Under the pieces are notes generated by a model. That model had not been told where the DNA came from. It was given only the letters and a program-made list of their open reading frames with translations, and made no database searches. Source: Anaeromyces robustus (Eukaryota; Neocallimastigomycota; Neocallimastigomycetes; Neocallimastigales; Neocallimastigaceae). Taken from it: a stretch of 36,736 nucleotides of DNA. How positions within the stretch are numbered: position 1 is the stretch's first letter; each line of letters begins with the position of its first letter. Made by a program: the position numbers and the translations under genes. This document shows, in pieces, positions 7,177-36,736 of the stretch. The DNA lies in the NCBI GenBank assembly GCA_002104895.1, contig MCFG01000211.1, positions 82,501 to 119,236 of the forward strand, in the 5' to 3' direction.

Positions 7177-10100
7177 TTATAATTCATTACATTCTTCATA
7201 AAGAGTATATGTTTTGTGGTCATTTTCTTTTGAAAATATTGATTCACCTGATTTGTTATTATCTAGAATATTCATAGGTTGGAATATAAAAGCATTATTA
7301 ACTATTTTTATTTTTAAGCTATTGACAAGTTCAGAAAATGATATATCATGATTATTATATAATTCCATTAATATTTTCATATTATTTTTAGCAATATCAG
7401 TAAATGAAACATTTGATTGATCATATTTAAGAAGAATTGGTTGAGTACTTACAAACATACCTATCATTTTCTCAAAATAATGATTGTTTCTATTGGCATT
7501 CATAATTGTAGTATATATAATTTCTTGTCCACTATATTTACTTAACACATATCCATATATACTTAAAAATAATGCTGACTTACTAATTTTATTGATCTGG
7601 GTATATTTATTAATTTTTTCATTCATTATTTTATCAATAAATTTAATGCAATTTCCTATTTCATTATTTTCTTTTCTATTACTGTTACATTCATTCTTTT
7701 TTTCTTTCTGAGGAATATTTAATAATTCATAATCCGTATTAAATATTTCTTTATAAAATTCAATTTGCTTTTCATAAAATCCATTATCTTGTTTTTCTTT
7801 CATATCAATAGCATAATCACTAAATTGAATTTCTAATTCGGAAATATTTCCTTCATTATAATATTTATTTAATTCATTCATAATAATCAACATAGTTGCT
7901 CCATCGGAAATAATATGATGCATATCAATTAATAAATATTCATTTCCAATAAATCCAACTCGAATTAATGGTGCTTCTGATAATTTGAATGGACGAATAA
8001 ATGATGAAACGTTATCATATGTATAATCTTCAAATTTTAAAATACATTCATCATCAATAAATCCATAAATTTCTTCTTTTCCATTAATTTCTTTTGAATA
8101 ATATTTAGTTCTAAGTATTTCTTGATTTTGGAATATTTTATTGAATCCTTCTTTAATTTTTTCAATATTTACATTTTTATTTAATTTAAATGATTCTGGA
8201 ATATTATAAATAATTGTTTCAGGATTTTTAATTGAATCAATATAAACACCTAACTGTTGAGATGTAACAGGAAATTCTTTACTATTACGTTTTTTAATAA
8301 TTTCAATATTTTTGGAATTATTATTACTATTTAATATTTTTTCAATATATTGACTTAATTGAACAATTAAAGAATTTTCATAGATTTCTTTAATATTTAT
8401 TTTAATTTTCCATTCTTTTTCAATCATAGAAATTAATCTAATAGCATTTAAACTATCACCTCCTAATTCAAAGAAATCACTTGCTTTTCCAATTTCATTT
8501 TCATTAATATTAAATAATTGACTATACATATGACATATACATTTTTCAATTTCAGTTTCTGGTGCAATATATTCTTCTTTAATAATATCTTTAATATTAA
8601 TTTCTGGTAATTCTTTTCTATTTAATTTACCATTTACTGACAATGGAATTTCATTAATCTTTTTATAATAATTAGGAATCATATAATGTGGTAATTTATT
8701 CTTTAAATAATTACGAATATCTTTTCCTTCAATTTCTTTAATACCATTATCATTATTATCATTACTATTATTATTATTATCATTCAATTGATAATAACAA
8801 ACTAAATATTTTTCTCCATTTTCTTTCTTTTTATCAATTACAATTCCATGTTTAATTTTTTCTATTTCATTAATCAAACTTTCAATTTCTCCTAATTCAA
8901 TTCTTTGTCCATGAATTTTAACTTGGAAATCAATTCTTCCTAAATATTCAATTTCACCATTTCTTGTCCATTTTCCAAGATCTCCTGTTCTATAAATTAT
9001 TTTATTATGTTCATCATCGTCAATGTTGAATGGATTTTCGATGAACTTTTCATTTGTTAAATCTTCACGATTAAGATATCCTTTACCTACTCCATATCCT
9101 CCAATAAATATTTCTCCTGAAACTCCTACTGGAACTAGTTTTAAATATTCATCTAATATATATATTTTATAATTACAATATGGTTTACCAATATTTATCT
9201 TATTTTCATCATTTACTTCATCAATTAATTTCATAGTAGTTCCGATTGTACATTCAGTTGGTCCATATTGATTATAAATTCGACAGTTTGAATATTGATG
9301 AATATATTTACATAAATCAATTGTTAATGCTTCACCTCCTAATAAAATTACTTTAATTAAACTAAGGCATTTTCTAAATTCCTCATTTTCCATAAATAAA
9401 TTCAATCTTGAAGGTGTAGTCTGAATAAAATCAACATTATTTTTAATTATATATTTTGATAATGATGAAATATTATTACTAATATCTTCATCAACTAGTA
9501 TTAAATTCAATCCATGAATCAAACAATTAATCGTTTCATTATGTGATGCATCAAATGAAAAATTAGTAATTCCTAAAATATTATTGACTTTTTCTTTTTT
9601 AATTATATTGCTAATGTTATCAAATTGAGAAGATTCGTCAAATTCTTTTGTGTAATTGTGAATATTAAAATGACTAATTAATGCTCCTTTAGGTTTACCC
9701 GTAGTACCTGATGTGAATAAAACATAACATGTATCATTTGGTTCGTTTATATTTCCAATAGAATTAATATTTAATTTATAGTCATGTTGTTGTACATTGT
9801 ATACTTTGTAATTTTCATTTAAAATTAATAATTTATCAATTATTTCTTGAGTATTATTATATAAAATCGTTTTTGGATTAACTTCATTTAAAATAAATTG
9901 AATACATTCAATTGGTAATTTTGGATCAATTGGTAAAAATGCACCTCCTGCTTTAGAAATTGAAAGAATACTAATAATGTAGTATGGAGAACGATTACTA
10001 ATTATTGGAATAATATCATTTCTTTGAATTCCATTTTTACGCAAGTAATTTCCTAATGAATTACTCATTTCATCTAATTCTTTATAACTTATTTTAGTTT

Positions 10101-11958
10101 CATTGAATATAATGGCATATCTATCTGGATATAATCTAGCCTTTTTACTAAATTCTTCATGATATAATTTTTCACATTCATTTTTATTTGTATCATTATT
10201 AAAATCATAAATTATTTTTTCTATTTCATCTTTAGGAATATAGTCAATCGTATTAATATTATTTTGATATTGATCAACATTTTTAATAATTTCTATATAA
10301 CTACTAAGAATTTGATTTATTAATTCATATTCGTATATGTCATTGTTGAATTCTATGGTAATATCATAATCATCAAGATGTTCATGTATAGAAACGGTTA
10401 TATCAAATTTTGTATCATTTCTAATATCTTCATTTCTACTTTCAATATTTGAACTTAAATCTTGGTAATCTTCAAATATTACTTCATTAGCGTTATGATG
10501 GAATATAGATTTTGGCTGGTAAATAAATGAATTATTAACTTTCTTTAATTTTAAAGTATTTAATAATTCTGAAAAAGAAATATCAGAATTCTGATAGATA
10601 TCCATTAATATATTCATATTATTTTTAATATTTTGTAAAATATTAACACCATCATCATACTCTAATAGTAAGGGTAAAGTAGTAACAAATAAACCTATCA
10701 TTTCATCAGTATAACGATTATTTCTATTTGTATTCATCATTGAGGTGTATATCCTATTTTGACCACTATATTTTGATAAGATATAACCGTAAGTACTAAG
10801 GAAAAATGCTGTTTTACTTATTTTATTACTTTTAGTATAATTATTAATTTTTTCACTTATTTCTTTATTAATAGTATTACGGCAAACACCAATAGGTTTT
10901 CTCTTTTTGTCATTGATTTCACCTTTACTATTGCTTATATTAGCATTATCCATTTTTTTTGAAATATTTAATAATTCATATTCACAATCAAACATTTTTC
11001 GGTAATATTCTATTTGTTTGGCATAATGAGCACTGTTTTTTTGGTCATTTATGTAAATAGCGTAATCTTTAAACTGGACCTCCAATTCTTTAACCTCATT
11101 ACCATTATAATAATTATTTAATTCGTTTTGAATGATTACCATGGTAGTACCATCGGATATAATATGATGAATATCTAAAAGTAACACTTCATTATTAATA
11201 AAACCTACTCTTATTAATGGTACCTTTGAAATATCAAATGGTTTTATGAAAGTATGAGCATTTTCCTTGGTATAAGATTCGAAAATGAGGGTACATTCAT
11301 TATCAATCCTACCGTATATTTCAATATTACCATTTATTTCCTTTTCATAATATTTACTTTTTAAAATTTCGTGCTTATTGAATAACTTGGTAAATCCATC
11401 TTTAATTTTTGAAATATCTGTATTTTTCTTTAAACGAAAAGCGACAGGATTATTATAAATGATACTATTTGGATTTTTTATGGAATCAATGTATATACCT
11501 AATTGTTGTGACGTTATTGGAAATTCTTGACTATCATATTTTTCAATTTTTTCTATTTTAAATAATGAATTTCTATTGTTATTATCATCGTAATGCCCTA
11601 TTATACCTTCCATAAATTGTCCTAAATCATGAATGCTAGAATAATAAAATACATCTTTAATATTTAATCTCACATTAAATTCTTTTTCAATGATTCCTAA
11701 AACTTTGGTTGCTACTAAACTATCACCACCTAATTCAAAGAAATCAGAATTCCTACCAATTTTTCCAATATCAATATTAAATATTTTTCCAAAAATAATA
11801 CATAATTTCTTTTCATAAGGAGTTTTAGGTGCTTCATAATCTTCCATGACGACTAAATCATTAATATTTGGTTCTGGTAAAGCTTTTCTATTCAATTTTC
11901 CATTAACATTTAATGGAACTTTATCAATTTTAATGAAATATTTTGGAATCATATACAA
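7177..11958 (-). CDS. NRPS fragment 2: A9/A10-T1-C2-A2-T2-C3 (part)
   Basis: 1593 codons. It opens at YMIPKYF (A9) and NGKLNRKALPE (A10), the tail of A1 after the deletion, then T1 (LGGDSL, carrier Ser 11719-11721). C2 has an intact HHIISDG. A2 is complete: TSGTTGKPKG, NQYGPTE, YRTGDLG, a GRIDFQVKIHG stretch, YMIPNYY and NGKLNRKELPE with the catalytic Lys. T2 follows (Ser 8452-8454), then C3 with HHIISDG. C3 is cut in its second half by TAA at 7177-7179. The A2 pocket residues read by eye against the GrsA Phe pocket are DANQLGQIGK, which I cannot assign to a substrate. A run of Asn and Asp sits between A8 and A9 (about 8745-8790). The first Met of this open frame is internal, so this would not be a natural start. 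Confidence 0.85.
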   Translation of the reverse strand: MYMIPKYFIKIDKVPLNVNGKLNRKALPEPNINDLVVMEDYEAPKTPYEKKLCIIFGKIFNIDIGKIGRNSDFFELGGDSLVATKVLGIIEKEFNVRLNIKDVFYYSSIHDLGQFMEGIIGHYDDNNNRNSLFKIEKIEKYDSQEFPITSQQLGIYIDSIKNPNSIIYNNPVAFRLKKNTDISKIKDGFTKLFNKHEILKSKYYEKEINGNIEIYGRIDNECTLIFESYTKENAHTFIKPFDISKVPLIRVGFINNEVLLLDIHHIISDGTTMVIIQNELNNYYNGNEVKELEVQFKDYAIYINDQKNSAHYAKQIEYYRKMFDCEYELLNISKKMDNANISNSKGEINDKKRKPIGVCRNTINKEISEKINNYTKSNKISKTAFFLSTYGYILSKYSGQNRIYTSMMNTNRNNRYTDEMIGLFVTTLPLLLEYDDGVNILQNIKNNMNILMDIYQNSDISFSELLNTLKLKKVNNSFIYQPKSIFHHNANEVIFEDYQDLSSNIESRNEDIRNDTKFDITVSIHEHLDDYDITIEFNNDIYEYELINQILSSYIEIIKNVDQYQNNINTIDYIPKDEIEKIIYDFNNDTNKNECEKLYHEEFSKKARLYPDRYAIIFNETKISYKELDEMSNSLGNYLRKNGIQRNDIIPIISNRSPYYIISILSISKAGGAFLPIDPKLPIECIQFILNEVNPKTILYNNTQEIIDKLLILNENYKVYNVQQHDYKLNINSIGNINEPNDTCYVLFTSGTTGKPKGALISHFNIHNYTKEFDESSQFDNISNIIKKEKVNNILGITNFSFDASHNETINCLIHGLNLILVDEDISNNISSLSKYIIKNNVDFIQTTPSRLNLFMENEEFRKCLSLIKVILLGGEALTIDLCKYIHQYSNCRIYNQYGPTECTIGTTMKLIDEVNDENKINIGKPYCNYKIYILDEYLKLVPVGVSGEIFIGGYGVGKGYLNREDLTNEKFIENPFNIDDDEHNKIIYRTGDLGKWTRNGEIEYLGRIDFQVKIHGQRIELGEIESLINEIEKIKHGIVIDKKKENGEKYLVCYYQLNDNNNNSNDNNDNGIKEIEGKDIRNYLKNKLPHYMIPNYYKKINEIPLSVNGKLNRKELPEINIKDIIKEEYIAPETEIEKCICHMYSQLFNINENEIGKASDFFELGGDSLNAIRLISMIEKEWKIKINIKEIYENSLIVQLSQYIEKILNSNNNSKNIEIIKKRNSKEFPVTSQQLGVYIDSIKNPETIIYNIPESFKLNKNVNIEKIKEGFNKIFQNQEILRTKYYSKEINGKEEIYGFIDDECILKFEDYTYDNVSSFIRPFKLSEAPLIRVGFIGNEYLLIDMHHIISDGATMLIIMNELNKYYNEGNISELEIQFSDYAIDMKEKQDNGFYEKQIEFYKEIFNTDYELLNIPQKEKKNECNSNRKENNEIGNCIKFIDKIMNEKINKYTQINKISKSALFLSIYGYVLSKYSGQEIIYTTIMNANRNNHYFEKMIGMFVSTQPILLKYDQSNVSFTDIAKNNMKILMELYNNHDISFSELVNSLKIKIVNNAFIFQPMNILDNNKSGESIFSKENDHKTYTLYEECNEL

Positions 11959-14300
11959 TTATTAATAGGACTACCCAAAGTAGCTGCATTTCTATCTAAT
12001 ATTTCTTCATAATCAATATTTTCAAATGTACAAAGTGAAGACAATTCAGTACAACCATAACCACAGAAGTATTCACGAGGACCAGTATATTGACGTAAAT
12101 TTTGTAAAAACTCAAGAGTTACTGTTTCACCACCAAATCTAAAGTATTTAATATACTTAAGTGAATCTCTGAAAAGTTCAAAATTTAAATAAAATTTTAT
12201 TCTTGTAGGAGGAGATATGATAATATCAACATTATATTTCTTTATAATATTTCCAATTAATGCCGGATTATTATATTCATTATTATTACATAAAGTCACC
12301 ATTCTATTTGTTATTAATGGATGGAAAAGTTCAACAAATGATAATACAAATGAAAATGGTGTGAAACCTAACATATTACTATGTTCAAAATTTTTTCCAT
12401 TTCGTTCCACCCCATATCTACAAGAATTATATAAACATTTATGAGAAATTAATACACATTTTGGAAGACCGGTAGTTCCAGAGGTGTAGAAAGAACAACT
12501 TATATCATCAATTTCATTAATATTTATTAATTCACTTTGACGATGATTTTTAAAATCATGATTTTTTAAATCATATACATCTAATGAATTATTTTGGTTT
12601 AATGATACTAATATATCATTAACATTTTGTGAATAATTCAAAACAATTCTTGCTTTAACATTATTTATCATATACATAATACGTTCTTTTGGAAATTCAG
12701 GACTAATAAAAACAAAAGCTCCACCTGCCTTCATCACAGCTAATGACGCAACAAAAAAGTAATAAGATCTTTCACATAAGATAGGAATAATTTCATTTCT
12801 TGTAATACCATAATTTCTTAGATAATAAGCTAAAGAATTACTCATTTCATTTAATATTTTATAAGTCACTTCACGATCTTCGAACACAATAGCACATTTG
12901 TCAGGATTTAATTTTGCATTTTTACTGAATTCCACATGATAAAATTTTTTTCCAAAATCAATTTTATTCCTATTAAAGTCATAAAGAATTCTTTTCTTTT
13001 CTCTAGGAGAAATATATTCAATATCAAATATATTTTTATAAATATTTTCCTGATTTTTAATAATTTCTAAATAACTGTCCATAATATTTTTAATGATTTT
13101 ATTTTCGTATAAATTGTTATTATATTCTATTGTAAATACGTATTTGTCTTCATCATCAATAACTTCAAAAATAAAATCAAAATTGTACAACTTATTAAGA
13201 AATAAATGAAAATCATTCCTATTATCATACATATTTATTTCTTCTATAAATGGATTAAGATTAATTTTTGATTTATTATTATTTGACTTATAAATAAATA
13301 TATTATTTAGGGATAATAAATTAGAATTCTTAAATTTATTCGATAATGAATTCTTCTGTTCATCATACTGAATTAATAAGGAATTCACTTCATTTATTAA
13401 ATCATTTAAAACAATATTATTATTAATATAAATTAGTAATGGTTGAATTAAATCAAATTCTCCAATAATATCTTTATTAATACTATTTCTTCTATTATTG
13501 AGAATTGAAGTATAAATATATTCTTGTTCACTATATTTAGTCATGGTTAGTCCATAAATAGAAATAAAAAATGAATATGGATTAAAGTTACAATTAATAA
13601 AATTCTTTAAAGTTTCGTAAATTTCACCACTAACGATGAAAGAATATTTTTCAGTAATTTTGTTATTACCACTAAGTTTAATATAATTATATCTTTTAGG
13701 AAGATTTAAAACATTATATTCATGATTAAACAAATTATCAATAAATTCTAAATTCATATCAGAATTCATATTATCAATATTTTGATTAAGATATTTACTA
13801 ACTTGTAAAGTCGAATCTAAACAAACATCACCATCACAGAAATTAATAAGTTTATTGATTAAAATATCAATAGAGGTTGAATCGGCAATAATTCTATGAA
13901 TATCAATCATTAAAATAGAATTTTCTACAAAACCTACTCTTAATAATGGAGACTTTGATAAATCAAAAGGTCTAATGAATTCATGATAATCATCATTTGA
14001 ATAATGTTCAACATTAATATTACTATTATCATCAATTGTATGAAATACTTTATCTTCTTCATTAAATTTTATAACAGAAAATTTGCTTTTCAACAATTCA
14101 TTCTTTTTAAAAATTTCATTAATTCCTTCTTTTAATTTAGTAATATCATGAACATTTTTAATATTATATTTTTTAAAAATATTAAATTTGGTTTTATCTT
14201 CATTTTCAAAGTAAGAAAAATAAATCTCACTTTGTAATGAAGTAGCAGAATAATATATTAAATTATTATTAATAATTTTTTCCATTTTAAAATAATTCAA
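11949..14300 (-). CDS. NRPS fragment 1: degenerate C1 and truncated A1
   Basis: This is the 5' piece of the NRPS, 783 codons, beginning MNYFKMEK at an ATG that directly precedes a C-domain N-terminus, so this is the probable gene start. Residues 1 to about 430 are a condensation domain whose HHxxxDG motif reads HRIIADS (catalytic second His replaced by Arg, codon 13893-13895). The A domain follows. Its A3 loop reads TSGTTGLPKC (last Gly to Cys), A5 reads GYGCTE, and the Asp that normally grips the substrate amino group is Val (12345-12347). The frame ends at 11949-11951, right after GSPINNC, where motifs A6, A7 and A8 should follow but are absent. The downstream piece resumes in another frame at motif A9. 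Module 1 therefore looks dead both by point change and by deletion. Confidence 0.8.
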   Translation of the reverse strand: MNYFKMEKIINNNLIYYSATSLQSEIYFSYFENEDKTKFNIFKKYNIKNVHDITKLKEGINEIFKKNELLKSKFSVIKFNEEDKVFHTIDDNSNINVEHYSNDDYHEFIRPFDLSKSPLLRVGFVENSILMIDIHRIIADSTSIDILINKLINFCDGDVCLDSTLQVSKYLNQNIDNMNSDMNLEFIDNLFNHEYNVLNLPKRYNYIKLSGNNKITEKYSFIVSGEIYETLKNFINCNFNPYSFFISIYGLTMTKYSEQEYIYTSILNNRRNSINKDIIGEFDLIQPLLIYINNNIVLNDLINEVNSLLIQYDEQKNSLSNKFKNSNLLSLNNIFIYKSNNNKSKINLNPFIEEINMYDNRNDFHLFLNKLYNFDFIFEVIDDEDKYVFTIEYNNNLYENKIIKNIMDSYLEIIKNQENIYKNIFDIEYISPREKKRILYDFNRNKIDFGKKFYHVEFSKNAKLNPDKCAIVFEDREVTYKILNEMSNSLAYYLRNYGITRNEIIPILCERSYYFFVASLAVMKAGGAFVFISPEFPKERIMYMINNVKARIVLNYSQNVNDILVSLNQNNSLDVYDLKNHDFKNHRQSELININEIDDISCSFYTSGTTGLPKCVLISHKCLYNSCRYGVERNGKNFEHSNMLGFTPFSFVLSFVELFHPLITNRMVTLCNNNEYNNPALIGNIIKKYNVDIIISPPTRIKFYLNFELFRDSLKYIKYFRFGGETVTLEFLQNLRQYTGPREYFCGYGCTELSSLCTFENIDYEEILDRNAATLGSPINNCI

Positions 14301-14680
14301 ATTATAATTTTATTTATTTTAATCAAGAAATTATTCTAAAAAAAATCTATACGTAGAATAGTTATAACTAAACTATATAATTTAATTAATTTTTAGATTT
14401 ATTACTATAATTATTTATATAATAATTATTAGTTGTATTTTATAATAATTATTATTACTATTATTAATAATTATAATTATTAATTATTGTTTATGTAAAT
14501 ATATATATAAATAAAAATTTTATATATTACTTTTTAAAAAATATTAATGAAAAATGGTCTTATTTATAAACCATTCAAAAAAATAATACTTTTTATAAAA
14601 TCTATATACATATTATAATTATTAATATATAATTTATTATTAATAAAATTGATTATTAATATATAACTTATTATAAAAAA

Positions 14681-17493: not shown

Positions 17494-17596
17494 GTAAGTA
17501 TAAAATAAAAAATAAATAAAAATTAATAATAATAATATTAAATTAAATAAAAGTTACTAATATTTTGATTTTATTATCTATTTATCTATAATATAG
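17494..17596 (+). other. Intron 1 of the CotH gene
   Basis: 103 bp, GTAAGT at the 5' end and ATATAG at the 3' end, with a branch-like ttactaat upstream of the acceptor. It splits an Ile codon (A + TT) and joins the two halves of the signal peptide in frame. Confidence 0.8.
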
Positions 17597-18179
17597 TTTA
17601 TTGTATTAATGCAATTTCAACTTTTGTTGATAAAGGTAATCGTCCTGAATTTTTTGAATTAACTGATAGTGTGGTAGCTACTTTTAGAATTACTATGCCA
17701 TCAGAACAATTTAATGACATGAAAAAATCATTAAATATAGGAAGTACTCCATTAATTGATAGTTTTAATGAAAGAATACAAATGGCCAATTTCTTTGTTT
17801 CAAATTTTATTGATGGATTAACAAGAATGAATTATACTTTACTTAGTCCAGAATATCCATTAAAGGATTTATTTCCACAATTAAAAATTGGGGATGACGG
17901 CATGTCTCAAATAAATAAAGAAGAAATTATTAGTGGAATGCACTTTGAACCTGAATATTATATAAATATTAAGGATAAAAATGGTATACTTATGCAAGCT
18001 ATTACATCCAATCCAAATTTTGATATTTATAATCTTGTTATTGCAATCACTTCTTTAAATTTGCTCAATAATCCTTATATAGATCCAATTATTAAAGAAT
18101 TACTCTCATACTATATTTCTTCAGAAGAATTATTTGAATTTAAAACTAAGAATAGTACTTTGGAGGTTGAAATTAATTC

Positions 18180-18437
18180 GTAAGTAATGTTTTTTTTTAC
18201 ATATTAAATAATAATATGTGTATAATAATTTATATATAATAATATGTTTTAAGATTTTATTAATATAAATAATTATATATAAAAATCATTACAAATTTTT
18301 ATAATTAATTCTAATTAATCTTTGATTTATTAATGAAATTTATAATCTATTTTTATAAAAATTTATTTATTAACTATATTGATTATTAATTATTTTTATT
18401 ATTAATATAAAAATTTTTAAAAAAATATAAATAATAG
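18180..18437 (+). other. Intron 2 of the CotH gene
   Basis: 258 bp, GTAAGT donor and AATAG acceptor, A/T-only apart from a few bases. Exon 2 ends with TC and exon 3 supplies T, restoring a Ser codon and the reading frame into VKKSFNKVTF. Confidence 0.75.
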
Positions 18438-20844
18438 TGTAAAAAAATCTTTTAATAAGGTAACTTTTTCTGTTGGTGGTCAATCTTCTCGTTATTTAAA
18501 TAAACCTGGTTATAATATAAAGATTCGTGGTAATAAAGATTTATATGGACGTACTCAATTTAAATTACGTTCAGATGTTGTTGAACCAACATACTTAAGA
18601 AGTAAGTTAGCTTCTGATATTCATAAATCATTAGGCCTTAAAGGTATTAGTAGTAATTATGTTACTTTATATATCAACGATGAATATTTTGGTTTATTTA
18701 TTATTAGTGATGCTTATAAATTATCTTGGATTGAATATGAATATTGTGAAAAGGATACTACTTCATTATATAAATGTCAAGGCAATTTAGAATCAAGTTA
18801 TCCATATAACTCGTTTATCAATCAAAATGATAATGTTACTGATTTAACCGAAATTATGGAATTATTAAAAATATTTGATAAGGCACAATCTGCTTCTGAT
18901 ATTAAAGATATTTTTGATGTTAATAATTTCTTAACAGAAATTTCTATTGAATATTTATTAGGTAGTTGGGATAACTTTAATAATATGAATAATTTCTTTT
19001 TATATAAACAACCCACTGGTAAATGGATTTATCTAACTAATGATTATGATAATTCATTTGGTGCAAATATGGAAATAGTGTTCTGTGGATATGTTTATGT
19101 TGATTTCCCAGAACGTATGGCTCAATGTCTTAAGGATTATACAAGTTACAACCTCGAGGAATATTATAAACCATTATATAGAGTTAATAATTTCCATATG
19201 ATTGATATTTTAATTTTGAAAGATCCATCTCATTTTGAAAAGATTATATCAAATATCGTTAAAAAAGTATTTAATCCAGCTACTCTTTATCCACATATTG
19301 ATGAATTAAAAGGAAAAAATTCGTAATGAAAATGGAATTTATCCAGGAGGTTATAATTTAAATGCTGATACCATTAATTCATATGATGAATGGGATGCTA
19401 ATTCCAAATTTACTGCAGTTAAATCAATGTGCGGTTTAAATGTTTATGGTATTAAATACTGGATTCTTGCTAAATATAGAAATGTTTGTAAAACTTATAA
19501 AATGGAATGTGATCCAATTTATATGGATGAAAATTATCAATACTCTGTTAATAAAGAAGTAGAATTCAAAGGTTATAATATTTCAGATGTACTATTATTA
19601 TCCAATGATACTAATACCACTATTGAAACCCCAATAACTAATATTACCACTACTACTACTGATATAACAACACCAATTCCAACGATAACAAATAGCTTCA
19701 AATGCTGGGCTGAATTAATTGGTTATTCATGTTGTCCATCTAATATATAAATAGTTTATGCTCAAGATGAATATGGAGATTGGGGATATGATTTCACTAA
19801 ACAGGAATGGTGTGGACTTACTCTAATTGTTGATACTGATAATAGTAATGATGAATGTTGGTCAGAAAGTTTTGGATATCCATGTTGTAAAAAATGTAAA
19901 GTAATTGAAATTGATGACGATGGCAACTGGGGTTTTGAATATAATCAATGGTGTGGAATTCCAACCAGTTGTAATCTTTAAAATTAAAAATTAATAATTA
20001 AAAATTTAAAAAAAAATAAATTAATAATTAATTTATATTTTTCAATTATATTGTTGTAAAAAAAAGAAAGAAATATAATACAAAATAATATAATAAAAAT
20101 ATAAATATAAATTAATAACTAATTCATTATATTTTTTTAATTATTTTTTTAAAATAAAAAAAAAAAGAAAGAAAGAAATATAATAAAAAAATAATAATAA
20201 AGTAAAAATAAAACCATTAAAAAAATAAAATATTTGAAATAAAAACGAAAACTATTTCTATTTTTGTTTTTTTTGTATATTATATTTATAAATCTTTTTG
20301 TATAAAAAATTATTCTTATTATTTTATAAATATTCAAAATGTTTTAAAAACTCAAGTTTCTACTTTTTATAAAAAAAATATTTATATTTTTATATTAATA
20401 TATTAAAATGTAAATATAATGTGTAAATTTTATTACGTAATACATTTTAATACATTATATATATACTTGAATTATTATTTCACAAATAAAGAATTCTTTT
20501 ATTTTTTATTTTAGAAAAGCTTAATTATTATTAAATATTATATATATAGATTAAAACAAAAAAAAAAAATTAATTTAACTAAACAACAATACATTAAATT
20601 TGTCAACACAAATATTAATTAGGTTTTAATAATAATTGTCAGAAATAAAATTTAAAATATCTTAAAAATATATTACTATAATATAATAATAATAAATAAC
20701 TTACATAATAAATATTATTTATGATAATTATAAAGTATTATTCTAATGTATTAGTGGCGCATGTATGATATATATAATTAATCTCTCTTAATAAAAATTA
20801 ATCTCTCTTAATAAATAAAGTATAAAGTAAACAATAATTCTAAT

Positions 20845-24975: not shown

Positions 24976-27900
24976 ATGGTTGGTGGTATTAACTTCGACG
25001 TTGATCCAAGAGATTATGATAATTTATATGATTTAGGTAAAGCTCTTTACCTTAATGACCAATATAATCCAGAAATGTAAATATTTTATTATATTTATTG
25101 TTTATATTTAAATAATTTTAGTATGAAAATTTAAATTTTAAAAAAGATTGTTTATTAAAAATTTTATGTATATAATATATAATATAAATAAAATATATTA
25201 AATGGGTGTTAATTGTTTTATTTATTGAAATATTTAATAATATAATATTAAATGAATTTAATGGTTCTTAATACATTTAACATATTAAATACTATACCCA
25301 AAATTATATATACTATAATATTAATTCTTAATTATATAAATGTAATTATTAACAATATTATTATATTATATTATATTTTATTATATAAATATATTAATTA
25401 ACAATAATATTATACTGTACTATATTATATTATATTATATTATATTATATTATATTATATTATATTATATTATATTATATTTTATTTTATTTTATTATAT
25501 TTTATTTTATTTATTTTATTTTATTTTATTTTATTTTATTTTATTTTATTTTATTTTATATTATATTATTTTATTTTATTTTATGATTATGGTTAATTTG
25601 ATAGTGATGGCTTACTTAAAACAGAAACTATATATGAAAAGTTGAAATTTTATTATGATATAAAAAAAGATAGTAATGATCCAATTTTTATTGCAAAACC
25701 AAATCTTTTTGGTTTACCCTTTAAACCTGAACCACATCCAGATTATCCTTCACCTTGGTTAACTGTATCTTATAAACAATTTTATGTATTATTAAAAGCA
25801 TTTGCTTATGTTTTAAAAAAAAGATTTGATTTAGAACCTCATTCAAGAGTAGGTATTGTTTCTAATGCTTCACCAATGAATATTTTACTTATTCATGCTT
25901 TATGGTTAAATCGTTGTTGTGTCATTGAAATATCACCAAAATTAAGTAATAATGTTAAGCAATTTTGGGTTAGAATGTTAGATATGAAAATGATTTTTTA
26001 TGATTATACTTTAAATATTTTTAATGAGGAAAAACAAAAGGAATTAAATGAAAAAGGAGAATGGATTTGGGAATGGGAATATCCTTTAAAAGAAGACGAA
26101 TATGATTTATCTGCTGGTTTTCGTGGTATTCCAATGTTCTTTATGGAAAATGTGGAATTTTGTGAAGAAATTTATCAATGTAGTTTAGAAGGTAAATCCT
26201 TTATTCGTCCTGGTCATAAAGATGATATTATTATAATGTTAGGTACTTCTTCTTCTTCTCAAGCTATTATTAAAGATGGTAATTGTTCAAAAATGAAGTT
26301 TATTCCTTACAAGGCAATACATTGTGGTCATCTTTTCCGTCACTTTTTATATAATAAAGATAATCTTCATCCTAAAGTTATGGTTGTTGCACCACTTTAT
26401 CATTCTTTGGGTTCAGGATGGTCAATGGGTCAGATTATGAATACTGGTAGTCCTTTAATTTTCCGTACTCAAAAAAAATATGATATTGGATTTGTACCTG
26501 AAAATATATTAGATGATATTATAGAAACTAAACCAGATGTTGTTCCACTTTTCCCAATTAATTATGTTGAATTTAAAAGACTTTTTGATGAAAACCATCC
26601 AAAATGTGAAATATGGGAAAAGGGTATCCGTTCTTTACCAAGAAGATGTTTCCTTTGTGGTGGTGCTCCACCAAATTATGATGTTATGTGTTGGTTTGAA
26701 AAAAAATTTAAAATACCTATTAATAATGTATGTGGTGCCACTGAAGGTGGTCTTTTCTTGTATAAAAATATTGATAAACCTCAAGTTCCAGGAGAAACAA
26801 ATTATATTAGTCGTTGTCCATGGCTTCATTTCCATTTGGAACGTGTGTCCGATGATCCTAATGAAGGTGAATTATATATTTATAATCCTTTCAGTATAAA
26901 GGGTTATGCTACTAGAGCTAAAAAGGGTGAATTCTATGAATCCACTTTGCCAAAAATACGTCTTGATTTAGAACATGATGAATTGTATAAAACAATTAAT
27001 GGACTTGAATATTACAAAACGAATGATATTTGGAAACGTAGTCCTGTATCAGGTGATTATGGTTATGTTTCTAGAGCTGATGATGTCATTAATTTTAGTA
27101 ATGGATTAAAAATGAATCCATTACCATTTGAATCTACAGTTACTTATGAATGTAATGATATTAAACAATGTTGTTTACTTTTAGATGATACTCAATGTGA
27201 AGTTGTATGTTTTGTTGAACCAGAATGGTCTAAAATTATTATGGAGAATGGTAAACCTTTTGATACTACCATTAATCCAGAAAGTTTATCAAGAGAAGAT
27301 CAAAATAAATTTAAAAAAATAGCTCAATCTCAAGTTTGGGATAGTATTTATCAAGTATTATCAAGAAGTTCTCAAAATATTAGTAATTGGGCTAAACAAC
27401 TTACTATTCATAATATTTATGTTGTAGATTATGGTAAAAGATTCCCAACTACGGATAAAGGATCTTTATCTAGAAGAGTAGCCAAATTAGAATATTCTGA
27501 AGTTTTAAAAAAGATTTCTAAACTTATTAATGGTGAAATTGATAGTTTTGATGAAGATATAAAGGAAGAAGAAGAAGAAAAAGAAAAAGAAAAAGAAAAA
27601 GATGAAGTTATTGAAAATAATAATACAAAAGCAAAAGAAATAAAAACAAAAGATTCTACTACTCAAAAGGAAATTTCAAAGGAACAAGAACAAGAACAAG
27701 AACATGAAAATGAAAATAAAAAATCTCAAGAAGAAATTAATGAAGAAATTCAAGAAGCTATTAAATTAATTTATGAAGCTATTAAAGAAATTGTACCTTC
27801 TACACCTGAATTTGAAGAATTTAATATTAATGCTCCATTTACTATTTATAGTATTGATTCTATAGGTACACGTAAATTAACAAATATTTTAGGTAGAAGA

Positions 27901-29726
27901 ACAGGAAAACCATTTACTACATCTACTTTATTTAATTATGGTACTACTTATGATCTTGCTAAATATATTACAGGTTATACTGATAAAGATAAATTTGGTA
28001 AAGATTTAATTCCAAAATCTATTGTTGCTAATAAAAAGGATATTAATAGTAATAAAATTGCTATTATTGGTATGGCTTTACGTTTACCAGGAGCTATTAA
28101 TAATGCTAAATCTTTCTGGATGGCTTTAGCTAAAGGTAAAGATTGTATTTCTACACCAGTTAAAGATAGAAAATTACATCTTGGTTATGTGGATAAGCCA
28201 TCCCATCTTTTAAATGAAAATGAACATAATATTCCTCGTTGTGGTTGTTATGATTCACGTTCAAATGTTGCTAAACCTTCTGAATTTGATGCAGAATTCT
28301 TTAATTGTCTTCCAGAAGAAGCTATGGCTCTTGATCCAAGACATCGTTGGATATTAGAAACAAGTTGGGAAGCTTTAGAAAATTCAGGTATTGCACCAAA
28401 TTCATTAGAAAATACCATTACTGGTGTTTTCCTTGGTATAAATGATAGTCATGATTATCATGATTTAATGAAAGAAAATGGTATTACACCACCTATTGCT
28501 GCCCATTCTACACCAAGTGGTATTGTTGGACGTCTTAGTTATTTCTATAAATTATTTGGACCTTCTTTCACGATTGATACCGCTTGTTCTACTGGTGCTT
28601 CTGCTTTACATTCTGCCTGTCGTTCATTACAATTTGGAGATTGTGATTTATCTATTGTTTCCGGTGTTAAATATTTATACACTTCAAATGATTTCCATAG
28701 AACAAGTATTGCACGTATGACTTCACCAAAGGGAAGATGTGCTACTTTTGATAAAGATGCTGATGGATTTGTTCCAAGTGAAGGATGTGTTACTTTTATT
28801 CTTAAACGTTATGAAGATGCTATTCGTGATCATGATAATATTCTTTCTGTTATATTAGGTACTAGTAGTGGACAAAGTGGTATTAGACAATCTATTAGTG
28901 CCCCATCTTCAGATGGACAAGTTATTAATTTAAAAAGAGCTCTTCATTTTGCTGGTGTCGATCCATCCGATATTTCATTTGTTGAAACTCATGGTACAGG
29001 TACACCACTTGGGGATGCTATTGAAGTTAATGCTTTAAATCAAGTTTATAAAGGAACTCATACTTCTGAGAATCCATTAATTATTGGTAGTGTTAAAACT
29101 AATATTGGTCATACAACAGAAGTTGCAGGTTTAGCAGGTGTTGCTAAAGTTATTTTATCTATGCAACATAAATATATTCCAAAGAATTTACATTTCAATA
29201 CATTAAATCCAGAAATTGATATTGAATCTATTCCAATTCAAATTGCTACTAAAACTATACCATGGGAAAATAAAAATAATAAACCACGTATTGCTCAAGT
29301 TTCATCCTTTGGTTTACAAGGAAGTATTGTTCATATTATTCTTCAAGAATACCTTCCAGAAAAGGAACAAAATGAACCAAAGGAACCAAAGGAACCAAAG
29401 GAACCAAAGGAACAAAAAGAACAAAATAATGAAATTGAAAATATGGAAAAGAATAAAGATTGTAAAGATAGTAAAAAAGAAGAAGATCATATTTTAACTA
29501 TTAGTGCTAAATCACCATTAGCTTTATTAGAATTAAGTAATAATTATTTAAATATTTTAGAAAGTATGGAAGATAATAATGAAAATATTGAAAATCTTTG
29601 TTATACTTCTAATATTGGACGTCAACATTTCAATTATAGAATAAGTGCTATTGGTAAGAATGCTAATGAATTTTATGAAGATCTTGAACAAAAAATTGAA
29701 ACTTATGAACAACAAATTGAATTATC

Positions 29727-29763
<37 letters not shown>

Positions 29764-30657
29764 ATTTCAAAGAATAATCATGGTCTAACTCAAAATCTTG
29801 AAGTTTATATTGAAAATGCTAAAAATATTGATATTTCACCAAAGATTAATGAAACTGTTGAAAAACTTGTTTCCACAAATAATATTTTCAAACAAACCTT
29901 TGAAAATTGTGAATCCGAAATTCAAAATATTTTTGAAAATATTTCATTTAAAGAAACCATGGATGATACTGTAAGTCAATTATATATTCTTTCCTTCTAT
30001 TATAGTTTACAACAACTTAATGAATCATTAATCATTAAAGATAATAGTAGTAAAATTATTTATGGAGGTTTTGGATTTGGTGAATTAGTTAGTATTGTTA
30101 TTGGAGGAGGATTAAATATTACATCAGCTTTCACTTTAATTAAATTATTATCTAATGATAAAATTAATGAAAATGAAATATCATCATGGTATAATCAACA
30201 AGATATTCCTAAATTCCAAAAAAGTGCTTATATTTCATCCCTTGATAAAGTATTTAAGAATGGTGATACTCTTTCTCAAAAGGATATTCTTTCTATTATG
30301 GAAAATATTCATGAAATTAAGAATATTTCATCCTTTATTGAAAATTATGGTAACAAGAGTAATACTATGACCTTATATAGTATGACTGGTCATAATGAAG
30401 AAATTAAGAAAGAAAGTAATTCAAAATATCCAAATCTTTCTATTACTGAATTTGTTGTTGAATCTTCTACTACCGAAAAATCATTAATTAATCAATTCAT
30501 TATGAATGAATATAATCAAGGAAAAACTATTAATTGGGATATTTATAATTCTAGATTTGAAAATGAAGAAGGACATCAAAAATCACTCCAAAAAATTGAA
30601 TTACCAAATTATCCATTCCAACGTTCCACTTATTGGCCAATTTCACTTAATAATTAA
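24976..30657 (+). CDS. Hybrid synthase: adenylate-forming domain - ACP - ketosynthase - degenerate acyltransferase
   Basis: Exons 24976-25076 and 25605-30657 join in frame (AT + T) to give about 1717 residues from an ATG reading MVGGINFDVDPRDYDNLY. Domains in order: an ANL adenylate-forming domain (about 60-690) with GATEGG at 411 and a C-terminal TTDKGSLSRR holding the expected Lys, but a poorly conserved phosphate loop (GTSSSSQ, 247). A Glu/Lys-rich linker follows, then an ACP (about 745-815, carrier Ser 786 in IDSIG). The ketosynthase (about 850-1275) has a full catalytic set: Cys 1028 in DTACST, His 1163 in HGTGT, His 1203 in NIGHT. Next come an EPKEPK linker, a KS-AT linker and an 11-Gln run, and an AT-like fold whose GHSxGE is GFGFGE (Ser to Gly, 1524). 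The end, LPNYPFQRSTYW (1700), is the usual post-AT motif. There are no KR, DH, ER or thioesterase domains. It probably loads an acyl acid onto the ACP and extends it with a unit supplied in trans; this is inference. Confidence 0.9.
25077..25604 (+). other. Intron of the hybrid synthase gene
   Basis: 528 bp, donor GTAAAT, acceptor GATAG. Without splicing, a TAA follows the donor directly, and the region from 25605 is open only in the frame that splicing joins to exon 1. Its 3' half is filled by the microsatellite at 25421-25585, which leaves only about 20 bases of ordinary sequence before the acceptor. Confidence 0.8.
25421..25585 (+). repeat. Compound ATATT / TTTTA microsatellite inside an intron
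   Basis: An ATATT pentamer array (about 25421-25490) grades into TTTTA pentamers (about 25484-25585). It lies wholly in the intron of the hybrid synthase, close to the acceptor site. Confidence 0.9.
29731..29763 (+). repeat. CAA repeat encoding 11 Gln
   Basis: Eleven CAA codons in the synthase frame (residues 1410-1420), in the linker between the KS-AT adaptor and the AT-like fold. Pure CAA coding suggests recent slippage. Confidence 0.95.
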
Positions 30658-32396: not shown

Positions 32397-33760
32397 GGAA
32401 AAAAGTTCCAAGAATTTCATGCAGTACAATTGGCTAATTTTTAATTTATTTTTATGTAATTTTTATTAAATTTTTTTTTTTTTTGTTCATATTTATTATT
32501 TTTAGTATTATTTATTTATTAATATATACTATTTTATTATTTATTATTTATTTATTAATTAGTATGATTTTATTAATTATTATTTAATTAAATAATTATG
32601 TAAAATAATAATAATTTATTTTCACAAGCCACACTATGTATACCACATTCTAAAATATAATTATCTCTTGTTTTATTATTTATTATTTATTTATTGTTGA
32701 TATATATAGAAAATTTAATAGATTTAAGACAAGCCACAAATATTAAATAATAATAAATGTATATTTATTCATGTAAATGTATTAATAAAGAATAATTATA
32801 AGGTTTTATTAATAATTAAAGTTACTAATAAAACCTAAAACAAAAAAATTTATTTTTAGTATTACTTAGTATTTATTATTTAGTATTATTTTACTATTTA
32901 TTATTTATTTATTAACAAGTATTATTAATTATTTATTATTTTTAGTATTATTTCACTATTTATTATTTATTTATTATTAAGTATTATTTTACTATTATTA
33001 TTTTTAGTATTATTTATTAATTACAAATAATAAAAAAAAAAAACAATAAAAAAAAGTCAGGAACAAATTTACAAGGGCCCTGAAATAGAATTCTTTTAAT
33101 TTTCCAATTAAAATATTTTTTATTTTATCAAATTTATTATATAATATTATTTATTTATTAATAAATAATATTTTAATATTTATTATTTATTTATTATTTA
33201 GTATTACTTATTAATTATTATTCATTTATTATTTAGTATTTATTATTGAAACATTTTAAGTCGAGTGATCAGTAGAACAAATTAGAAATTAGATATGATA
33301 AATGATTTTTATGAACTAGTATTTAGTTGCATTTATTAATAAAATAAAGTTGCATTTTCTTCGATATTTAAATTATATCTAATAAAATACAATTATTATT
33401 CTATTATTTATAATTATTTTATATAAAATAAAATAAAAAAAGACTTTTTAAATATATATATTTTTTACTTAAATATATCTATAAATTCTTTATATATGAC
33501 TAAAAAGTATTATTATTTAATATTTAAATATTACTAAATTAAATAAAAAATTCTTTTAATATTGGTAGAACGAATACTTTAATTTATTATTGATTTATTA
33601 TTTATTATTTATTATTTATTATTTTTATTTAGCATTATTTTATTAACAAAAAAACATCAGCAAAAAAGCAAAAAAAAAAAAAAAAAAAAATTAGGAACAA
33701 TTTTCCAAGAATCCACCAATTAAATTGATTAATCTTTAATTAATTTTTTCATTCATTCAA
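32397..33760 (+). repeat. Three diverged modules spaced about 650 bp apart
   Basis: At 32397, 33060 and 33693 a similar string occurs: ggaa-caaa-tttccaaga or a close variant, preceded by an A-rich run (short at the first copy) and followed by a variable stretch and a TTTTTAATT-type end. Between them lie TTATT-based degenerate repeats of the atttagtattatttactattt type. This suggests an old higher-order tandem array. Confidence 0.5.
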
Positions 33761-33784
33761 ATAAATTTATTATTAATTATTTTT

Positions 33785-34420
33785 AGTATTACTCTAGTAT
33801 TTATTATTTATTTATTAATAAGTATTACTTTAATATTTATTATTTATTTATTAATAAATATTATTTTATTATTTATTATTTATTTATTAATAAATATTAT
33901 TTTATTATTTATTATTTATTTATTAATAAATATTATTTTATTATTTATTATTTATTTATTAATAAATATTATTTTATTATTTATTATTTATTTATTAATA
34001 AATATTATTTTATTATTTATTATTTATTTATTAATAAATATTATTTTATTATTTATTATTTATTTATTAATAAATATTATTTTATTATTTATTATTTATT
34101 TATTAATAAATATTATTTTATTATTTATTATTTATTTATTAATAAATATTACTTTAATATTTATTATTTATTTATTAATAAATATTATTTTATTATTTAT
34201 TATTTATTTATTAATAAATATTATTTTATTATTTATTATTTATTTATTAATAAATATTATTTTATTATTTATTATTTATTTATTAATAAATATTATTTTA
34301 TTATTTATTATTTATTTATTAATAAATATTATTTTATTATTTATTATTTATTTATTAATAAATATTACTTTTGTATTTATTATTTATTTATTAATAAGTA
34401 TTACTTTATTATTTATTATT
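33785..34420 (+). repeat. 36-bp minisatellite, about 17.6 copies
   Basis: Head-to-tail 36-bp units made of aataaatattattttattat followed by ttattatttatttatt. The central units appear identical and the first two and last two are variant (for example aagtattactttaat). Each unit contains the 12-bp palindrome TTTATTAATAAA. Apart from an occasional C or G it is pure A/T. No reading frame uses it. Confidence 0.9.
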
Positions 34421-34493
34421 TTTAGTATTATTTTTTTTTTAATAAATTTTTTCCCAATAACAATTGAAAATAATTAAAAAATAAATATGAAAT

Positions 34494-34538: not shown

Positions 34539-35230
34539 TTTTTATTAAATAGCTTTTTCTATTTTTTTTTAAATATATTTAAACTTCAATTATGAATTAC
34601 TATATTATAATCAATAAATACTCTAAATGTAATAATTCGATAAGAATATTATAACATCTCGAATAAAGAAAAAATTATTTTTTTTAGTAATATTTTTTTT
34701 TAATTTTGGATTTAATATTTTACTACAAGTATCATTAATTTCCCACATAAATGGTTTAGTCATTTAATTGGTTTATAATAATTCTATTTTTTAAGGTTTC
34801 TTTCTAATATTTATTTTATTATTTCAAATAAAATGAAGTTTTACATTATTAAATCTATTTATAAAAAAGAATTCAAGTTTTTAATATTTTTGTAACTCTC
34901 CTTTAAATTGATTCTAAATATCAACATGTTTTTCTTTTAAATTGATTTTAAATATTTTAATATAAATTTTTAATATAAAAAATTACTCTTTTCATATAAT
35001 AACAATAATATTTAATTTAATAGATTTTAATATATAATATTTATAAAATAATATATATATTTTTAATTTATTAACATATAATATTATTTATAATATCTGT
35101 AACTTTTTATTTAGAAAAAAATAATTTTGAATTTTTTTTTTTTTTTTGTATAAAAAGAAGAAAAATTCGCAAAAAAAAAAATAAAAATCAATAATAATTT
35201 AAGAAAAAAAATTAATTTAAGTAAAAAAAA

Positions 35231-36736
35231 ATGAACTCATTTCAATTGTTAGTTTGTGTTACAGCCTCATTTTGTGGGCTTCTTTTCGGTTATGAAGTTG
35301 GTGTCATGAATGTAGTTAACACTATGGATGCCTTCAACATTTACTTTGGTTTAAATAAATGGGATGGTTCTTCTGTTAATGAATATGGTAAGAACCCAGC
35401 CGAAGATAAGGATCACCCAAATGCTACCGAATTATTCTACCGTTCATTACAAGAAGGTACTGATAAAGATTGGAGATCAGGTATGATTAATTCAGCTTTC
35501 CTTTTAGGTTCTGTTCTTGGTGCTCTTGTTGCCACCTACTTTGGTGAAAAATACGGTCGTAGAAACAGTATTATTGTTGGTGCTTGTATTTTCATTGTTG
35601 GTATTTTCCTTGAAGCTTTCTCTCCAGCAAACTACCTCTTCATTTCCTTTGGTCGTATTGTTGCTGGTATTGCTATTGGTTTAAATAGTGTCATTGCTCC
35701 AACTTATATTTCTGAAGTTGCTCCAGCCAAATACAGAGGTACTCTTTCTTCTTGTTATCAACTTATGACTACTTTCGGTATTGTTATTGCTGCTGCTATT
35801 AATTCTATCATTTGGTACAAGACTAATTTCAAACCAGAAGGTTTAGCTAATGCTAAAGAAACAAGAAAAGGTCATGAAGAAGATCAACTTGACAATATGG
35901 AATGGAAACTTGCTCTTTTAATGCAACTTGTTCCAGGTATTGGTCTTGCTGTTCTTATGTTCTTCCTTCCAAAATCACCAAGATGGTTATGTTCCAAGGA
36001 TCGTGATGAAGAAGCTGCTGAAGTTCTTGCTAAGCTTAATGCTACCTCTTCTTCTGACTCTCTTGTCCAAGAAGAACTTAAAGCCATTCAAGAAGATGTT
36101 GCTGCTACTCGTGCTGCTGGTTCTTCCTCTGTTAGTGAACTTTTCAGTTCAGTTGTTCGTCGTCGTACTTTCATTACCTTCCTTATGCAATTATTCCAAC
36201 AATGGACTGGTATTAACCAAATTATGTATTACCAATCTCAAGTATACGAAAGAATGGGTTTCACTAAATTCACATCTACTTGTGTTTTACCAATTATTAA
36301 CAATTTAGTTAACTTTGTCTCTACCTTCCCAGGTATGTGGGGTATTGAAAAGTTAGGTCGTAAAACTTTATTAGTTATTGGTGCTATTATGATGGCTGTT
36401 TTCCATTTAGGTGTTTTCATTTGCTCTACTCAAACTCAAAAGGAACAAGATAATCCAGCTATTAAGGTTGCTAATTCTTGGAAGATTGCTGCTGTTATCT
36501 GTATTTTCTGTTTCGTCTTCTCCTTCGCTTGGACTTGGGGGTCCAGTCCCATGGGTCTACCAAGCTGAAGTCTTCCACTCCGTGTTAGAGTTAAGGGTTC
36601 TGCTGTTGGTAGTTTATCTAACTACTTCAACAACTGGATTCTTACTTTCCTTGGTCCATACCTTATGACTCACTGGAAGAAATATACTTTCCTTCTTTTC
36701 GCTGTCTGCTGTTTCATTGCTTGGGCCTACTCTCAA
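35231..36736 (+). CDS. MFS sugar-porter family transporter, partial at the window end
   Basis: The start MNSFQLLVCVTASFCGLLFG enters the first membrane segment directly. Sugar-porter hallmarks: GEKYGRR between TM2 and TM3, GRIVAGIAIG, PAKYRGTL, PKSPRWL after TM6, QQWTGINQIMYY in TM7, and EKLGRKT after TM8. It should be a plasma-membrane hexose or disaccharide transporter; the substrate cannot be told. The frame from the ATG ends at TGA 36566-36568, but homology continues: the next stretch reads GPVPWVYQAEVF after dropping one G from the G5 run at 36537-36541. The original frame then returns after adding one C near 36570 and runs PLRVRVKGSAVGSLSNYF to the window edge through TM11 and TM12. The two indels compensate and both sit in homopolymers, so sequencing error is likelier than decay. 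Codon use is richer in C-ending codons than in the synthases, which fits high expression. The gene continues past 36736. Confidence 0.85.

What the first reader, a model, noticed from the sequence alone, without database searches (positions are those of the whole stretch)
24976..30657. Compact adenylation-ACP-ketosynthase-dead acyltransferase protein in a gut fungus
The protein is intact, with a complete ketosynthase triad (Cys 1028, His 1163, His 1203) and a carrier Ser, yet the acyltransferase nucleophile is gone (GHSxGE to GFGFGE) while the AT scaffold and the post-AT LPxYPFQRxxYW motif remain. An ANL-type domain leads the protein, and there is no reductive or release domain. A synthase that activates its own starter acid but must get extender units elsewhere would be an unusual fungal design. 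Established: the role of each motif in PKS families. Inference: trans loading, or a starter-forming role.
Basis: partly seen in the sequence, partly recalled or inferred. Interest (0 to 1): 0.75.

Follow-up and report, generated by a model that had tools for sequence, protein, structure and literature searches.

The report
Starter-activating synthase with dead acyltransferase
A gut-fungus-like genome carries at least nine copies of a polyketide enzyme that can probably activate its own starting acid and still has its chain-joining part, but whose building-block loader is dead in every copy, so it probably works with a partner enzyme.

Summary
The gene is two exons (24976-25076, 25605-30657) encoding 1717 aa: ANL-ACP-KS-acyltransferase(AT)-like region. 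KS Cys1028, His1163, His1203 and ACP Ser786 are present; the AT nucleophile motif reads GFGFGE.

The same genome holds at least eight relatives with the same order and an open main exon. The AT serine is missing in 9 of 9, and so is the segment that carries the AT histidine. KS triad and ACP serine are present in 9 of 9. The region is AT by descent (hhalign 100%, E 1.4e-40, against two active ATs of this genome). Long-term omega is about 0.11 (synonymous sites saturated); between recent copies results are mixed.

No stand-alone malonyltransferase was found: six AT matches, all in ORFs of 2099-4215 aa. The sister synthases C445 and C32 keep AT, KR, ACP and a thioesterase-like end; C445's N-terminal ACP-like domain lacks the serine.

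Best reading: the protein activates a starter acid, primes its KS, and takes extender and carrier from a partner synthase; the pseudo-AT is scaffold. The order is that of hispidin synthases, minus a working AT and the last ACP. Partner, substrate and product are inferred. No other gut fungus could be searched.

The parts
24976..25076 (+). exon 1 (ATG start; 33 codons plus 2 bases)
   Evidence: GT donor at 25077; joins in frame to exon 2; tblastn finds similar 34-aa exons upstream of the three near copies, 68-85% identical
25077..25604 (+). intron, GT...AG, very A+T-rich
   Evidence: predicted from sequence only, no transcript data
25605..30657 (+). exon 2, rest of the 1717-aa protein, stop at 30655-30657
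   Evidence: single open frame
25753..27513 (+). ANL (adenylation) domain: AMP-binding 25753-26907 and AMP-binding_C_3 27079-27513
   Evidence: Pfam 63.3 and 26.9 bits, both over cut-off; P-loop reads GTSS[ST][ST]QAI[IV]K and the C-terminal lysine (role recalled) is kept, both in 9 of 9
27814..27969 (+). acyl carrier domain, Ser786 at 27859-27861
   Evidence: PP-binding 17.9 bits, below Pfam's cut-off of 20.8; serine in 9 of 9 family members
28048..29196 (+). ketosynthase; Cys1028 28585-28587, His1163 28990-28992, His1203 29110-29112
   Evidence: Pfam 215 + 120 bits; best PDB-sequence relatives are PKS KS domains, 7zma and CurL 4mz0
29206..29382 (+). KS C-terminal extension (KAsynt_C_assoc), followed by low-complexity acidic/Lys stretch
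   Evidence: Pfam 37.6 bits
29488..29685 (+). KS-AT linker (CurL-like_PKS_C)
   Evidence: Pfam 58 bits
29719..30609 (+). pseudo-acyltransferase: AT scaffold without the nucleophile and without the segment that carries the histidine
   Evidence: hhalign prob 100, E 1.4e-40 vs active ATs of C445/C32, linker included; hmmsearch CurL 3e-30, ZmaA 3.6e-13; alignment
30067..30084 (+). GFGFGE, the position of GHSxGE in active ATs (Gly1524 where the Ser should be)
30610..30636 (+). post-AT motif YPFQRSTYW
   Evidence: YPFQRxxxW in 8 of 9 family members and YQFQRSYYW in C110

Best explanation
The gene encodes an acid-activating, KS-bearing starter protein. Its ANL domain probably adenylates a carboxylic acid and loads it onto the adjacent ACP, and the intact KS takes that acyl group. 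The AT-like region cannot load malonyl: both catalytic residues are gone. It is kept as a structural platform between KS and post-AT linker (shown: loss of residues, AT homology, long-term conservation; inferred: scaffold role). Extender units, the carrier for the extended chain and its release must come from another protein (inferred). The best candidates are the KS-AT-...-KR-ACP-thioesterase synthases of the sister clade (C445, C32).
For: Nine genes of one genome share the order and the AT lesion, with KS Cys-His-His in 9 of 9 and ACP Ser in 9 of 9. The lesion is ancestral to the family: in a KS tree the nine lie on one side of a branch (support 98/93), next to C445+C32, joint node 100/100. 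Long-term codon-model omega: KS 0.065, ACP 0.057, pseudo-AT 0.114, ANL C-half 0.096. Homology of the region to AT. No fabD match for the window or C434 protein, while C445 and C32 match fabD at 168 and 149 bits. No stand-alone AT found in the genome. C445 and C32 have GHSLGE and AFHS, KR and a downstream ACP, and end in a thioesterase-like domain (C445 76 bits, over cut-off; C32 22.9 bits, below its 26.4).
Against: No physical or expression link to any partner; C445 and C32 lie on other contigs than the nine genes and look able to work alone. The ANL P-loop is non-canonical in 9 of 9, so acid activation is not assured. Between recent copies the pseudo-AT evidence is mixed: window-C121 omega 0.73, not distinguishable from neutral (p 0.41), and faster than KS (p 0.017); C109 pair 0.42; window-C214 0.08 on four changes; window-C537 no change. 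ANL omega 0.76-1.18 between recent copies, p 0.31-0.67 against neutral. The structure model of the pseudo-AT is mostly low-confidence (pLDDT 63, pTM 0.42, under 50 at 182-194, the nucleophile loop, and at 240-326).
Confidence: 0.5

Rival explanations
1. TAS1-like: the terminal KS does not elongate but closes or releases an acyl or hybrid intermediate brought on the ACP, so no extender and no AT is needed and the AT was free to decay.
For: TAS1 is a fungal enzyme with a lone terminal KS that cyclises and has no AT (PMC4640141, abstract and passages read). Here too no C-terminal ACP, reductive or release domain was called.
Against: TAS1's triad is Cys-His-Asn; this family keeps Cys-His-His of condensing KS domains in 9 of 9. 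No condensation domain was called in front. The AT remnant is kept rather than lost.
Confidence: 0.18
2. Self-contained synthase loaded by borrowed malonyl transfer: an AT of the fatty-acid synthase or of any PKS loads malonyl on the single cis-ACP, and the enzyme extends alone.
For: Two further AT matches with GHSLGEYAAL motifs lie in ORFs of 3843 and 4215 aa, FAS-like by the motif as recalled. The pseudo-AT could be a docking surface, as AT remnants in bacterial trans-AT PKS are said to be (recalled; papers not read).
Against: One ACP would have to hold starter and extender at the same time (inference); no stand-alone AT found.
Confidence: 0.17
3. A decaying, recently amplified family without function.
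For: ANL and, for window-C121, pseudo-AT changes near neutral between recent copies; a scrap with stops on C42; segmental duplication.
Against: Nine open main exons; KS constrained even between recent copies (window-C121 omega 0.21, p 1.4e-4 vs neutral); long-term omega 0.04-0.16 over the domains.
Confidence: 0.1
4. The AT is catalytic through another nucleophile or fold.
For: G..GE around the site is conserved in the 7 members aligned.
Against: The residue at the nucleophile position varies (alignment-dependent: Gly, Glu, Asp, Asn or similar), and the segment that carries the histidine is missing in 9 of 9.
Confidence: 0.02

Closest known systems
Hispidin synthase (HispS) and related basidiomycete PKSs (ANL-ACP-KS-AT-[KR, DH]-ACP)
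   Same: Order ANL-ACP-KS-AT as written in PMC9866795 (passages read); fungal; a starter acid used by an enzyme with its own AMP-binding domain.
   Different: Here the AT is dead and shortened, and there is no C-terminal ACP.
Gut-fungal KS-AT-...-KR-ACP-thioesterase PKSs C445 and C32 of the same genome
   Same: Nearest KS clade (joint node 100/100); same KS-AT linker and post-AT motif; C445 has a homologous N-terminal ACP-like domain.
   Different: No ANL found in the 3-4 kb upstream held (tblastn), N-terminal ACP serine missing, AT intact, KR, downstream ACP and thioesterase-like end present.
FadD32-Pks13 (mycobacteria)
   Same: The NCBIfam Pks13 model matches window ACP-KS-linker (396 bits, well under its 2100 cut-off). 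An ANL enzyme charging an N-terminal ACP in front of a KS is the working order there (recalled; only titles and abstract openings seen).
   Different: There the ANL is a separate protein, the AT is live, and a second ACP and TE follow (recalled).
TAS1 (tenuazonic acid synthetase 1)
   Same: Fungal, terminal KS, no working AT.
   Different: C-A-PCP-KS, Cys-His-Asn triad, no AT.
Bacterial trans-AT PKS with AT docking remnants
   Same: KS followed by an AT remnant without catalysis (recalled).
   Different: No stand-alone AT found in this genome; best PDB-sequence match of the remnant family is CurL, a PKS with its own AT.

Membership tests
Type I PKS condensing module | KS with Cys-His-His | tested here: met
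   9 of 9 family members
cis-AT type I PKS module | AT with GHSxGE Ser and the catalytic His | tested here: not met
   0 of 9 have either; no PF00698 match to the window protein or to any of the nine genes at E 0.01
Hispidin-synthase type PKS | Order ANL-ACP-KS-AT-ACP | tested here: not met
   ANL-ACP-KS present; AT dead; no second ACP before the stop
Hispidin-synthase type PKS | Makes styrylpyrone from a cinnamic acid | not testable with these tools
   No substrate or product data
trans-AT PKS | Stand-alone AT in the genome | tested here: not met
   Six AT matches, all in ORFs of 2099-4215 aa; assembly may be incomplete
trans-AT PKS | KS of the trans-AT clade | not tested
   KS matches 7zma ('putative polyketide synthase') and CurL best; no trans-AT reference set was put in the tree
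TAS1-type NRPS-PKS | C-A-PCP-KS with Cys-His-Asn | tested here: not met
   TAS1 features
ANL superfamily (adenylation) | AMP-binding fold motifs incl. P-loop and C-terminal Lys | tested here: inconclusive
   Pfam 63 bits; Lys kept, P-loop GTSS[ST][ST]QAI[IV]K non-canonical, 9 of 9, while an NRPS A domain of the same window reads TSGTTGLPK

The most novel reading that the evidence does not exclude
A split polyketide synthase born by duplication with reciprocal domain death. An ancestor of the ANL-ACP-KS-AT-...-KR-ACP kind became two cooperating gene lines. In one (nine genes here) ANL and ACP live and the AT is dead. In the other (C445, perhaps C32) the N-terminal ACP is dead, the ANL is gone, and AT, KR, a second ACP and a thioesterase live. 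Each protein would supply what the other lost, with the multiplied starter genes feeding different acids to a few shared extension and release enzymes.
Probability: 0.25. Interest if true: 0.75.

Novelty: new variant of a known kind. Interest (0 to 1): 0.5.

Why it matters
It would be a fungal assembly line divided between proteins by complementary loss of domains, with a many-copy starter set and few extension enzymes. That is testable in vitro and relevant to the largely unassigned polyketides of anaerobic gut fungi (Swift et al. 2021, PMC8106346, report a putative baumin with no gene assigned; abstract, section 8 and passages read). It also warns that AT-based searches miss such genes: PF00698 finds none of the nine.

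Tried and rejected
Stand-alone malonyltransferase: searched, not found. Relatives outside this genome: genome contigs and viral-contig scans with the single protein gave none (the peptide patterns fell in variable stretches). A second genome-contig scan with a KS alignment gave 46 bacterial loci at 29-40% KS identity. None was checked for an ANL in front of the KS.

Structure: the pseudo-AT stretch folded alone gave a worthless model (pLDDT 36). With 18 bacterial AT sequences it reached pLDDT 63, good over the linker and much of the N-terminal AT part, under 50 at 93-114, 182-194 (the nucleophile loop), 240-326 and 381-388. Foldseek then listed PKS KS-AT and AT structures first (50 of 202 rows seen, 2 with E 0.001 or less), but with TM 0.23 or less. 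That is weak support, and biased because the alignment was made of ATs. The window pseudo-AT alone found nothing in PDB sequences at E 10; only the family profile did.

Positive selection on ANL among the four near copies: considered, not supported (binomial p 0.31, 0.44, 0.67). For window-C121, ANL differs from KS in Nd/Sd (p 0.007), but relaxation explains it equally well. ANL against 3' half in synonymous differences: window-C537 16.5 vs 1 (p 1e-5), window-C214 14 vs 6 (p 0.02). This fits gene conversion of the 3' half; the tests use rounded counts.

C32's N-terminal domain as a dead ACP: not established (5.8 bits, 7 of 1000 shuffles as high, hhalign prob 3). C445's is better (15.8 bits, 0 of 1000 shuffles, hhalign prob 91). 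The real downstream ACPs score only 3.4 (37 of 1000 shuffles as high) and 11.0 (0 of 1000) with the same profile, so the score itself is a weak yardstick.

Caveats of the controls: of the 37 bacterial AT stretches (24 of 46 loci, spanning more than 250 model positions), 36 had GHSxG and 28 had the [AS]FH[ST] string, so the histidine control is weaker. Of the six own-genome AT matches, three (C32, C177, C445) showed that string. The structure alignment used 18 of the 37. The tree used 42 of the 46 bacterial loci (the other four had no KS match covering model positions 60-380) and 13 own-genome KS; it warns that the letter make-up of several rows, the window's among them, departs from the rest. 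The pseudo-AT profile used 7 of the 9 family members (near-copies C537 and C214 left out). The five distant relatives were read by exon; their splicing is not established, and some genome matches cross one stop, as an intron would give.

Full report
What is there. The window is G000:C126:82501-119236 of a 70,169,043-base assembly in 769 contigs. G+C is about 8-33% by kilobase. Very A+T-rich DNA, NRPS genes and 101 matching stretches for the CotH gene of the window (lower bound) fit an anaerobic gut fungus; the species is not known to me and the phylum is inferred. On the + strand a two-exon gene (24976-25076 and 25605-30657) gives a 1717-aa protein. Pfam calls AMP-binding, AMP-binding_C_3, PP-binding (below cut-off), KS N and C, KAsynt_C_assoc and CurL-like KS-AT linker, but no acyltransferase, reductase or thioesterase.

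The family. Searching the own genome with the protein found three near copies (C537, C121, C214; 93-98% identity) and five more distant relatives (C109 twice, C157, C434, C110; 31-55% in the pieces of the main exon). ANL exons lie upstream in all five, and all nine have a long open main exon ending shortly after the post-AT motif. In an alignment with the active ATs of C445 and C32, none of the nine has the nucleophile Ser (window GFGFGE; others GFGLGE, GNGILGE, GREFGE, GYDIGE, GGENIGE), and the stretch from the helix after the nucleophile to the SNVTG region, which carries AFHS and the small subdomain (named from memory), is missing; C157 keeps some unrelated residues there. The N-terminal and post-AT pieces remain; G193, G197 and E198 of the aligned region are invariant in the 7 members aligned.

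It is an AT by descent. Profile-profile comparison with the two active ATs: probability 100, E 1.4e-40, but the KS-AT linker contributes. Against PDB sequences the family profile finds CurL in three blocks (linker 55 bits, AT N-half 30 bits, post-AT 23 bits) and the excised ZmaA AT-domain structure 4qbu (E 3.6e-13). The predicted structure adds little.

It is maintained in the long run. Codon-model omega over nine genes: KS 0.065, ACP 0.057, KS-AT linker 0.043, ANL C-half 0.096, pseudo-AT 0.114, post-AT 0.162 (synonymous sites are saturated, so these are rough). Between recent copies the picture is mixed. Window against C121: KS omega 0.21 (p 1.4e-4 against neutral), pseudo-AT 0.73 (p 0.41), ANL 0.76 (p 0.31). 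The C109 pair gives 0.42 for the pseudo-AT; window-C214 gives 0.08 on four changes; window-C537 has no change there. The C121 result counts against a strongly constrained scaffold in the newest copies.

Other domains. KS Cys, His, His are present in 9 of 9, and the ACP serine in 9 of 9. The ANL keeps its C-terminal lysine in 9 of 9, but its P-loop reads GTSS[ST][ST]QAI[IV]K in 9 of 9 in place of the canonical form, whereas an NRPS A domain in this window reads TSGTTGLPK. Whether it activates acids is open.

Where could extender units come from? A search of the genome with the AT family gave six matches, none stand-alone and none in the nine genes. Two of the six, C445 and C32, are KS-AT-...-KR-ACP proteins (no dehydratase was called) that go on to a thioesterase-like end: C445 Thioesterase 76 bits, C32 22.9 bits, below the cut-off of 26.4. 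They form the nearest group to the family in a KS tree with 42 bacterial rows (family 98/93, joint node 100/100). C445 starts with an ACP-like domain that matches the family's ACP (hhalign prob 91, E 1e-6; 0 of 1000 shuffles as high) but has no serine there; for C32 this is not established. Neither shows an ANL in the 3-4 kb upstream that I held. So the two lines carry complementary content: the window protein lacks AT, second ACP and release domain, C445 has them and lacks ANL and a working first ACP. That they cooperate is an inference; C445 and C32 could also work alone.

Mechanism proposed. Acid to acyl-AMP to acyl-ACP (cis), then acyl-KS; the condensation partner malonyl-ACP would be supplied by a C445/C32-type protein, which would also carry and release the product; the pseudo-AT holds the KS-linker-post-AT unit together. 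Shown: domain content, lesion, family-wide state, homology, long-term constraint. Inferred: every reaction step.

Comparison. The order ANL-ACP-KS-AT-ACP is that of hispidin synthases, and orthologues in related fungi add KR and DH (PMC9866795, passages). TAS1 ends in a lone KS with Cys-His-Asn (PMC4640141, abstract and passages). Swift et al. 2021 catalogued PKS and PKS-like genes of four gut fungi and found the PKSs conserved (PMC8106346; abstract, section 8 and passages); a 2025 review cites that work (PMC11747023, passages). In what I read of these, this architecture or an AT lesion is not described. The searches listed no paper whose title or abstract opening suggested a fungal PKS family with a dead AT; listings 19 and 78 were capped (20 of 305 and 8 of 26 papers), supplements were not open, and most listed papers were not read, so this is no proof that it is not in print.

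Verdict. A real, family-wide variant of a known kind: confirmed as a pseudo-AT synthase by sequence, with its partner and product unknown.

Noticed in passing
window 35225-36736 and C214, C741, C536, C42, C30: The sugar transporter next to the gene has six copies (its own included) at 99-100% identity, and the window ends at the contig end, so a recent segmental duplication reaching beyond the synthase gene probably broke the assembly.
   Followed up: partly
L084 3283-3551 (C42): Only a 3' scrap of the synthase gene with stops lies beside a transporter copy, a sign of birth and death of copies.
   Followed up: partly
window 25606-30654 against C537 and C214: Near copies are mosaic: KS to end almost identical (window-C537: 1 synonymous difference) while the ANL differs (16.5), as gene conversion of the 3' half would give.
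   Followed up: partly
window 248-14309, - strand: NRPS domains (condensation, adenylation, carrier) spread over five adjoining open frames; the 3 kb searched has many relatives, most at about 70-82% DNA identity.
   Followed up: no
window 17569-19981: CotH-kinase gene with a cysteine-rich dockerin-like tail (tail named from memory); 101 matching stretches in the genome.
   Followed up: no
window 33740-34477: Long A+T-rich repeat open in two frames, not examined.
   Followed up: no
L019 (C177): PKS frame that holds a segment looking like an alpha-oxoamine synthase at the start of the stretch held (recalled resemblance).
   Followed up: no
L037 (C124): AT match of 72.6 bits without a GHSxGE string in the stretch held; another possible damaged or spliced AT.
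   Followed up: no
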